DNA of 37,760 nucleotides. It comes from Sulfobacillus sp. GTDB taxonomy: Bacteria; Bacillota; Sulfobacillia; Sulfobacillales; Sulfobacillaceae. The notes beneath the pieces are model-generated. The model was not told the DNA's origin, did no database searches, and saw only the letters and a list, made by a program, of their open reading frames with translations. Below, in pieces: positions 36,021 to 37,760 of the stretch. The DNA lies in NCBI GenBank assembly GCA_027309085.1, contig DAIDDL010000041.1, positions 1-37,760 of the forward strand, read 5' to 3'. The translations under genes and the position numbers were made by a program. Position 1 is the stretch's first letter. Each line of letters starts with the position of its first letter.

Positions 36021-36480
36021 ATGAATCACTCCACCACGTCTCCTCCCATAAAAGTCAAACACCGTACAACAACCCATTTGTTGCCACAATATCACACATT
36101 TGAGAAATGTCGCGGTTCTTACGCCGAATTAACGTGTGCAGAGACTCTTTCTGCGGCGTCAAGGGCACGCCGAATCACACGGGTGCCCGTAAACGTCCAT
36201 GGGCCCCGATACGCTGCTCTAACACCATTCCGGCAATGACTCGTGGCCTTCTGCGCAGCCTGGTGGGTTTTGCGGGAATTCCCTACGGTGCGCCGCCGGT
36301 TAGATTGGGGGGGACTTTGCGTGGTCAGCCCTCGGGTTTGCCACCTTGTTGGTCGCCCTCAGCAATGGACCTGCAGATGGATGGGGATCGCGGAAAATCG
36401 TCATGTTATTCATCACGTCCGGATCGTCCCTGTTATTGTTCGTACTATGGGAGGCCCGCCATAAGACACCACTTATGAAC
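36021..36480. other. Gap without a gene
   Basis: About 460 bases between the short peptide and the tnpB 3' end. No coding frame stands out and no RNA gene was recognised. Its right part should contain the right end of the IS200/IS605-type element. Confidence 0.4.
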
Positions 36481-36640
36481 TCTCCCACCACCTAACCCTG
36501 TCGGGTTGAGGTGGGGGTTTCTCGGATCACTCCGAGGTGTTCCTGGTTCCGCGACTTGTGCGTGGAAGCCGCAGGCTTCGCATGTCTTATGTAGGTCTCC
36601 CCAGGCGTGACTTCGGACCGTTCCGGCCCTAGTTTCTGAA
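36470..36640 (-). ncRNA. Possible omega (reRNA) guide RNA of TnpB
   Basis: TnpB nucleases use an RNA made from the 3' end of their own gene plus the element's right end; its 3' tail is the guide. Here the last 150 bases of tnpB and the hairpin at 36486 would form the scaffold, and the guide would be the sequence left of about 36470 on the minus strand. The boundaries are not visible from sequence and are inference by family. Confidence 0.3.
36486..36516. repeat. Right-end-like hairpin of the IS200/IS605 element, over the tnpB stop
   Basis: The stem CCACCT-AACCC/GGGTT-G-AGGTGG (loop TGTC) covers the tnpB stop codon. IS200/IS605 elements carry such imperfect hairpins near their ends, where they are recognised by TnpA and form part of the RNA guide of TnpB. 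Confidence 0.5.
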
Positions 36641-37682
36641 AAATCCGCGTAGTTTTGTGAGGTGTCGTGAGCGAATCACCGGAAAGAAGCTTTTTGATCC
36701 CTCGCTTTGCGATCACCACGGCTGCATTGTGGTCCGCATTATCGATGTGCCCGCAGCGTTGACAGACAAACTCGGCTTGGGTCAGCCGATTGTCCGGGGA
36801 AGTGAATGTGCACACGGCACATTCCTGCGAACTTGTCGCGAACGGCACCATAATGACGAGCTTGCCCTGTCGCAAGGCTTTATAGCGGGTGAATGTGACC
36901 ACCTGTCCCCATGCCGACGACAAGATGGCCCGATTGAGGCCCGCTTTGGCTTTCGCCCCGTTGGGCAGAAAATGACCTTGGGCGTCTTTCTTCGCCTTCG
37001 GACGTTTGGTCATATTTTTGATCGGCAAACCCTCAAACGCATACAAATCGTACGCCGCGTTGACCACGAGGGCATGGCTGGTCTGGTGCGCATACTCTTG
37101 CCGTACATTGACCTCATACCGCTGATAGCGGGCTGCCTTGCGATAGGCTTTCTTTTGATTCTGCGACCCTTTTTTTCGGCGCGCCGCCCGCCGCTGCCAG
37201 CGCTGGCGTTGGCGCCGCGTTTTCTGAATCCGTGGTTTCTGTACCGGCAGGAGATCAAAGACCTGCCCATCCGAAGTGGCCAAAGGCTTCGCGACGCCCC
37301 GATCCCCGCCGAGCGTGCGCTCAGCGAGTTGATCGGGGGACAAATGCCGCAAGTCCTCGGCGATCTGCTCTGTGGCGGCGTCGGCATCGCGTCCAGGCAT
37401 CGTCACATCCGGATCTTCTGACGCAAACGAGAGCCACCCATGGCCGCCCTCCACGGCAATATGAATCGACGCGGGCATCGCATGCGCCCGGTGCGCCACA
37501 TAAGGGATGACCCCCACGGGAAACTTATTCGTGCCCAAGGTGAGCTGATATGATCCGATTTCACCGGTCTGATCATCGATTTGCGGGAGGAACTCAAATA
37601 ACTCCTGGGTGATCCATACGGCCTGCCGCCCTGATTTTTTCTTGAGCTTCGGACGCCCACCTAATTTCTGAAAGAATCGCTG
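36492..37682 (-). CDS. tnpB: IS200/IS605-type RNA-guided nuclease TnpB, interrupted by a group II intron
   Basis: About 397 codons of tnpB are visible; the first part lies beyond the intron to the right. The frame reads RFFQKLGGRPKLKKKSGRQ immediately after the intron, the conserved N-terminal region of TnpB. The RuvC-type active site is complete: Asp in GGDRGVAKPLA, Glu in YAFEGLPIKN, Asp in DNADHNAA. The zinc-finger cysteines CAVC...CQRC are intact. TnpB cuts DNA under guidance of an RNA derived from its own 3' end. No tnpA is in the window. If the intron splices, the protein could still be made. Confidence 0.9.
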   Translation of the reverse strand, partial: QRFFQKLGGRPKLKKKSGRQAVWITQELFEFLPQIDDQTGEIGSYQLTLGTNKFPVGVIPYVAHRAHAMPASIHIAVEGGHGWLSFASEDPDVTMPGRDADAATEQIAEDLRHLSPDQLAERTLGGDRGVAKPLATSDGQVFDLLPVQKPRIQKTRRQRQRWQRRAARRKKGSQNQKKAYRKAARYQRYEVNVRQEYAHQTSHALVVNAAYDLYAFEGLPIKNMTKRPKAKKDAQGHFLPNGAKAKAGLNRAILSSAWGQVVTFTRYKALRQGKLVIMVPFATSSQECAVCTFTSPDNRLTQAEFVCQRCGHIDNADHNAAVVIAKRGIKKLLSGDSLTTPHKTTRIFQKLGPERSEVTPGETYIRHAKPAASTHKSRNQEHLGVIRETPTSTRQG

Positions 37683-37760
37683 ATAAGCGAGTAGCCCCGG
37701 GGGGTTACACCCCGAGGCCCTCCCAGAACCGGACGTGAGTCTCTCGACTCATCCGGCTCC
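37683..37760 (-). mobile_element. Group II intron, 3' end (domains V and VI)
   Basis: On the minus strand, 37726-37759 forms a 34-base domain V: GAGCCGGATG at one end, CGTCCGGTTC at the other, with a GAGA tetraloop. It closely follows the consensus of group II intron catalytic domain V. Domain VI follows as GAGGGCCTCGGGG ... CCCCGGGGC, with a likely branch-point A in CTACTC. The 3' splice site is placed at 37683 but might be 37691. The rest of the intron, including any reverse transcriptase, lies outside the window. It has the same direction as tnpB, as expected if splicing restores the mRNA. Confidence 0.85.

What the first reader, a model, noticed from the sequence alone, without database searches (positions are those of the whole stretch)
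36492..37760. Group II intron nested in an RNA-guided nuclease gene (tnpB)
The sequence shows a domain V of the right length and motifs directly joined to an open TnpB frame with complete catalytic residues and in the same orientation. Thus one selfish element has inserted in another, at a conserved coding site. Two RNA-based systems, a splicing ribozyme and a guide-RNA nuclease, are then coupled: TnpB can be made only if the intron splices.
Basis: partly seen in the sequence, partly recalled or inferred. Interest (0 to 1): 0.75.

Follow-up and report, generated by a model that had tools for sequence, protein, structure and literature searches.

The report
Group II intron homing into tnpB
A self-splicing, copy-and-paste intron has settled inside the gene of an RNA-guided DNA-cutting protein (TnpB), at one fixed spot, in two different copies of that gene in this bacterium and as relics in related genera, so one genetic parasite has specialised in living inside another.

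Summary
The window (a whole contig from a Sulfobacillus-family bacterium) ends with the last 75 nt of a group II intron (D5/D6, Rfam E=1.2e-6), joined directly and in frame to the 3' exon of an IS200/IS605 tnpB with its catalytic residues. The missing 5' half was found: two other contigs carry the tnpB 5' exon ending ..KFRQA| followed by the intron 5' end GUGUG. An uninterrupted tnpB in the same genome and more than 30 in the order place the insertion exactly between KFRQA and YQRFF, phase 0. Two copies share identical intron ends while their exons are only about 77% identical, so the intron moved by itself. Its EBS1 and EBS2 loops pair with the tnpB exon (6/6 and 5/5). In the closest full-length relatives, which sit in the YADD motif of other introns' reverse transcriptases, those loops fit YADD instead. 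tnpB-intron junctions also occur, decayed, in three other genera of the family. This is a group II intron lineage retargeted to tnpB: a known kind (introns in IS elements) with a host gene I did not find described. Not shown: splicing, the unassembled ~0.8 kb middle of the intron, and any regulatory coupling.

The parts
37686..37760 (-). 3' end (75 nt) of a group II intron: D5 (about 37726-37759), D6 with bulged branch-point A at 37692, last intron base 37686 (..CUACUCGCU|). The contig ends here, inside the intron.
   Evidence: Rfam RF00029 E=1.2e-6; fold z=-4.7; all 75 nt shared with the second copy on C117; same 3' end in YADD-inserted relatives
36492..37685 (-). 3' exon of tnpB (residues after ..KFRQA, beginning YQRFF), 397 codons plus stop; RuvC catalytic residues and zinc ribbon present
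   Evidence: contiguous with its 5' part in uninterrupted copies
36475..36631 (-). right end of the IS200/IS605-type element and conserved 3' tail of tnpB, probable omega-RNA region; repeated many times in the genome without the rest of tnpB
   Evidence: many places match query 176-250 or 176-332 (window 36475-36631) at about 75-97%; the omega-RNA role is inference

Best explanation
A mobile, ORF-containing group II intron of a lineage that nests in other mobile elements has been retargeted, through changes in its EBS1 and EBS2 guide loops, to a conserved coding site in tnpB (FRQ-A|Y-..RFF) of IS200/IS605 elements in the Sulfobacillus family. It inserts by retrohoming (intron RNA reverse-splices into the tnpB DNA and its reverse transcriptase copies it), travels with the IS, and when transcribed splices out so that full-length TnpB can be made. 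Shown here: both junctions, exact empty sites, two copies with identical intron ends in diverged tnpBs, matching EBS/IBS pairs, the RT/maturase fragment, a separate clade of tnpB-site introns in several genera. Inferred: retrohoming, splicing, translation of the spliced TnpB, any effect on IS or TnpB activity.
For: Both ends. 5' exon|GTGTGCCACGAAGG on contigs C5 and C119; intron end|exon on C108 (window) and C117, C117 with RT/maturase (PF08388, PF00078) upstream of D5. Empty sites: C87 in the same genome and congener copies run straight through; more than 30 uninterrupted copies in 42 genomes of the order. Geometry: C5 shares exactly 77 nt with C119, C108 exactly 77 nt with C117, as expected of one repeat (the intron) with two left and two right flanks. 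Exons are only 77% identical, so the intron moved independently. Targeting: EBS1 GGCUUG pairs 6/6 with IBS1 CAAGCC (C5) and EBS2 CGGAA 5/5 with UUCCG; no cross pairing exceeds 4 contiguous pairs with YADD exons; EBS1 lies in a 12-nt hairpin loop. Siblings in RT YADD motifs differ in exactly these loops. Recurrence: 5' junctions in G022 and G018, 3' junctions in G036 and G018, tnpB-type EBS loops in G040/G041; one clade, support 1.00 (5') and 0.995 (3', together with a few other-site introns).
Against: No contig holds a complete tnpB-intron; about 0.8 kb of the intron (nt 380 to RT residue about 209) is not in the assembly. The pairing C5-C108 and C119-C117 is inferred from exon similarity; a synteny test gave nothing. 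One of the two hosts looks decayed: C119 tnpB begins ATA and its tnpA has an in-frame TGA. All copies in other genera are truncated relics. The last two intron bases are CU rather than the common AY, though the same end is seen in the relatives.
Confidence: 0.88

Rival explanations
1. Inert relic: the intron inserted into tnpB but these copies no longer splice or move; tnpB is a pseudogene in two pieces.
For: Intron interior unassembled; C119 tnpB start codon ATA and tnpA TGA; all copies in other genera truncated.
Against: Intron ends identical in two loci with diverged exons imply recent movement; both 3' exons are open for 397 codons without a stop; C5 5' exon open with a GTG start; EBS/IBS pairs intact; D5/D6 intact. 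Low pairwise dN/dS (0.08-0.18 among intron-bearing copies and C87) shows constraint but mostly predates the insertion.
Confidence: 0.3
2. Composite mutualist element like an IStron: the intron is a stable, inherited part of the IS and serves it.
For: Association found in at least four genera and one intron clade.
Against: More than 30 copies of the same tnpB family lack the intron; intron and exon divergences do not match; an intron inside tnpB cannot remove the IS from a host transcript, as an IStron intron does.
Confidence: 0.07
3. Assembly artefact or chance joining of an intron fragment and a tnpB fragment.
For: The contig ends inside the intron.
Against: Same junction to the base on two contigs and in other genera; 5' junction at the homologous codon; canonical intron boundaries; exact empty sites.
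Confidence: 0.02

Closest known systems
Group II introns F4 of Thermosynechococcus elongatus in ISEL1, an IS200-family element (PMC2882425)
   Same: Group II introns, several copies at one conserved site of an IS200-type element; the same paper states as a general mechanism that introns evolve to insert at a conserved site of another mobile element, IS or intron
   Different: Those introns lack the ORF, and the passages read do not name tnpB as the site; here the lineage has an RT/maturase and the site is in tnpB of a different element and phylum
RmInt1 in ISRm2011-2 (Sinorhizobium meliloti; PMC4238363)
   Same: ORF-containing group II intron inside the transposase gene of an IS; stop codons in the intron make the host protein depend on splicing; poor splicing is proposed to limit the IS
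   Different: Host is an IS transposase, not an RNA-guided nuclease; splicing was measured there, not here
Twintrons: group II introns in the YADD motif of other introns' reverse transcriptases (Sulfobacillus acidophilus plasmid CP003180, S. harzensis, C151 and C44 of this genome)
   Same: Same intron lineage: IEP up to 73% identical, same 5' and 3' intron ends, nests in another mobile element's gene
   Different: EBS1/EBS2 loops and target: RT YADD instead of tnpB QA|Y
IStrons (group I intron plus an IS with TnpB; PMC4227781)
   Same: Self-splicing intron associated with a tnpB-bearing IS
   Different: Group I ribozyme, with the IS inside the intron so that the whole unit splices out; here a group II intron is inside tnpB

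Membership tests
Mobile group II intron | Domain V and VI with bulged branch A | tested here: met
   Rfam E=1.2e-6; fold
Mobile group II intron | 5' end GUGYG at the exon boundary | tested here: met
   GUGUG after ..CAAGCC/CAAGCU on C5 and C119
Mobile group II intron | EBS1-IBS1 and EBS2-IBS2 pairing | tested here: met
   6/6 and 5/5 with the tnpB exon
Mobile group II intron | Intron-encoded RT/maturase in D4 | tested here: inconclusive
   C-terminal half (RT end with YADD, maturase domain) present upstream of D5 on C117; N-terminal half not assembled
Mobile group II intron | 3' end AY (a common, not an obligatory, feature) | tested here: not met
   Ends ..GCU; lineage relatives end ..GCU or ..ACC; C-rich 3' splice sites are reported for class D introns
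Mobile group II intron | Splicing and retrohoming activity | not testable with these tools
   needs RT-PCR and a mobility assay
TnpB (IS200/IS605 RNA-guided nuclease) | RuvC catalytic residues D, E, D and zinc ribbon | tested here: met
   Alignment to 8bf8; NF040570 above its cut-off
TnpB (IS200/IS605 RNA-guided nuclease) | omega-RNA at the right end and guided cleavage | not testable with these tools
   Right-end region conserved in many copies; activity untested
IStron | Group I intron flanking the IS so that the whole unit splices | tested here: not met
   Group II D5; intron inside tnpB

The most novel reading that the evidence does not exclude
Splicing of a tnpB-specialised group II intron acts as a switch on an RNA-guided nuclease: guide RNA is made from the tail whether or not the intron is removed, but nuclease only when the intron (with its maturase) splices, and the intron in turn rides on TnpB-driven retention of the IS.
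Probability: 0.12. Interest if true: 0.75.

Novelty: new member of a known kind. Interest (0 to 1): 0.5.

Why it matters
It couples two RNA-guided systems in one gene and gives a natural retargeting series: siblings of one intron lineage in the same family sit in RT YADD motifs and in tnpB, and their guide loops differ accordingly. That makes target switching of group II introns, and splicing control of a TnpB nuclease, directly testable. The general arrangement (an intron hiding in an IS gene) is already known.

Tried and rejected
Rfam on 14 congener tnpB loci found no intron: the insertion is not general in the genus. A search for tnpB next to relatives of the intron protein in 80 genome and 12 viral loci found none, so tnpB is not the usual home of the wider family. 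A synteny test to pair the contigs C119-C117 gave no hit. dN/dS cannot date selection relative to the insertion. Eight literature searches found no description of a group II intron in tnpB; only open-access full texts are held. Rejected: IStron membership, chance junction.

Full report
What was claimed.

The observation. Rfam places Intron_gpII at 37686-37759 on the minus strand, E=1.2e-6, the only family found in the window. The 75 nt fold into a domain V hairpin and a domain VI with a single bulged A, z=-4.7. The next base, 37685, begins an open frame of 397 codons with TnpB domains above curated cut-offs; alignment to solved TnpB (8bf8) shows the catalytic Asp, Glu, Asp and the zinc ribbon. 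The window is a whole contig of a 4.49 Mb, 172-contig genome and ends inside the intron. The organism belongs to the Sulfobacillus family: one genome of the same family (G028) has a replicon of 84,933 bases, the length of the S. acidophilus DSM 10332 plasmid CP003180.1, and the same intron.

Finding the other half. A second contig, C117, has the same intron end, now preceded by the RT end and the maturase domain, and followed in frame by another tnpB 3' exon, 75% identical in protein. Contig C87 has an uninterrupted tnpB. With its 5' part as query, two further contigs, C5 and C119, carry the tnpB 5' exon on the strand leading into the contig end. There ..GTCAAATTCCGACAAGCC (C5) or ..CGGCAAGCT (C119) is followed by GTGTGCCACGAAGG, the GUGYG start of a group II intron. 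Reading on from the exon meets a stop about 20 codons into the intron. In C87 and in the congener loci that hold both parts, the two parts of tnpB join at this point without a gap, and more than 30 copies in 42 genomes of the order are uninterrupted there. The intron therefore sits between the codons of KFRQA and YQRFF, phase 0.

Two copies. C5 ends with exactly 77 bases shared with C119, and C108 begins (read on its minus strand) with exactly 77 bases shared with C117. This is the signature of a repeat with two left and two right flanks in a k=77 assembly graph (the assembler is inferred). All shared intron sequence is identical, while the exons are 77% identical. The intron has thus moved between diverged tnpBs. 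Which left flank goes with which right flank is inferred (C5 and C108 are the closer pair to C87); a synteny test gave nothing. About 0.8 kb of the intron interior is absent from the assembly. Intact relatives are 1827-1864 nt long, with a 414-residue protein of RT and maturase type that ends just before D5 in S. acidophilus.

Targeting. The intron's 5' 379 nt fold with GGCUUG in a 12-nt hairpin loop. GGCUUG pairs with all six bases of CAAGCC (one G-U in C119), and CGGAA pairs with UUCCG further upstream. The empty copy C87 reads CACGCC and would break EBS1 pairing after three bases; most congener copies keep CAAGCC. The closest full-length relatives sit elsewhere: in C151 of this genome, in the S. 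acidophilus plasmid and in MAG FK2.bin21 the 5' exon ends at the YADD (FADD) motif of a reverse transcriptase. At least 31 of 69 readable 3' exons of relatives of the intron protein are RT sequence following YADD. In C151_A and S. acidophilus the EBS2 loop is identical (AAAGCGTAGGG) and the EBS1 loop nearly so, fitting YADD; the tnpB intron differs in exactly these loops. The lineage has been retargeted between RT and tnpB; that RT was the earlier target is inferred from its wider spread.

Distribution. Across the order, 5' junctions ..KFRQA|intron occur in G022 and G018, and 3' junctions intron|YSRFF or YHRFF in G036 and G018. The tnpB-type EBS loops occur in G040 and G041, where the exon is not visible. 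Together with G000 that is junctions in four genera and guide loops in a fifth. All copies outside G000 are truncated. Among 154 genomes of the class no 5' tnpB junction was found outside this family. The tnpB-site introns form one clade (5' part, support 1.00; 3' part, 0.995 with a few introns at other sites; short alignments) apart from the YADD introns.

Mechanism. Best supported: retrohoming into the conserved tnpB site, carriage with the IS, and splicing that restores tnpB. The first two rest on sequence; splicing is inferred. The tail of tnpB that probably carries the omega-RNA is outside the intron, so guide RNA may be made whether or not the intron splices. One host (C119) has lost its start codon (ATA) and has a stop in tnpA; the other (C5 with C108, if paired) has a GTG start and an open frame.

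Known relatives. Introns at a conserved site of an IS200-family element (T. elongatus F4 in ISEL1, PMC2882425) and RmInt1 in an IS transposase, where splicing limits the IS (PMC4238363), are the same kind of arrangement. IStrons pair a group I intron with TnpB elements the other way round (PMC4227781, and general knowledge). I found no report of a group II intron in tnpB in the open-access library, which misses subscription papers.

Verdict. A real nested element and a lineage specialised on tnpB. New member of a known kind; interest 0.5 because the host is an RNA-guided nuclease and because the retargeting can be read in the guide loops.

Noticed in passing
L056 3449-4891 (G000:C151:12448-13890): Intron within intron: one relative sits in the FADD motif of a reverse transcriptase, and its own reverse transcriptase is interrupted at YADD by another copy of the lineage.
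   Followed up: partly
L011 5326-5399 (G000:C44): Another copy of the intron end (D5/D6 90.5% identical to the tnpB one) followed by reverse transcriptase sequence (VVVVKGTKAHAETIR..), i.e. at a YADD site.
   Followed up: partly
L331, L332, L335, L336, L339 (3' side of intron ends); L333, L334, L337: Introns of the lineage are followed in five loci by (C/T)ATCAGAACGG and in three by GACCATTCC.., then diverge: recurrent target sites of unknown nature; two of the first set fall in the tnpB-intron clade.
   Followed up: no
L296-L300, L305 (5' side of introns): Recurrent 5' exon like GGGTATYCGGATTTTG before introns of the lineage in genera g10 and g11, apparently not in an open gene.
   Followed up: no
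L081 620-1180 (G000:C119): The IS carrying one intron copy has a divergent Y1 transposase gene with an in-frame TGA (..YWKPYF*HRAYYVG..), and its tnpB begins with ATA.
   Followed up: partly
window 36475-36631 and many places in G000, e.g. L012 5640-5905: Short copies with both IS ends and the conserved tnpB tail but almost no tnpB: likely non-autonomous elements that could make omega-RNA in trans.
   Followed up: partly
window 36107-36478: Between ilvD and the IS right end lie short decayed pieces, one reading like a carboxylesterase start (GIPYGAPP).
   Followed up: no
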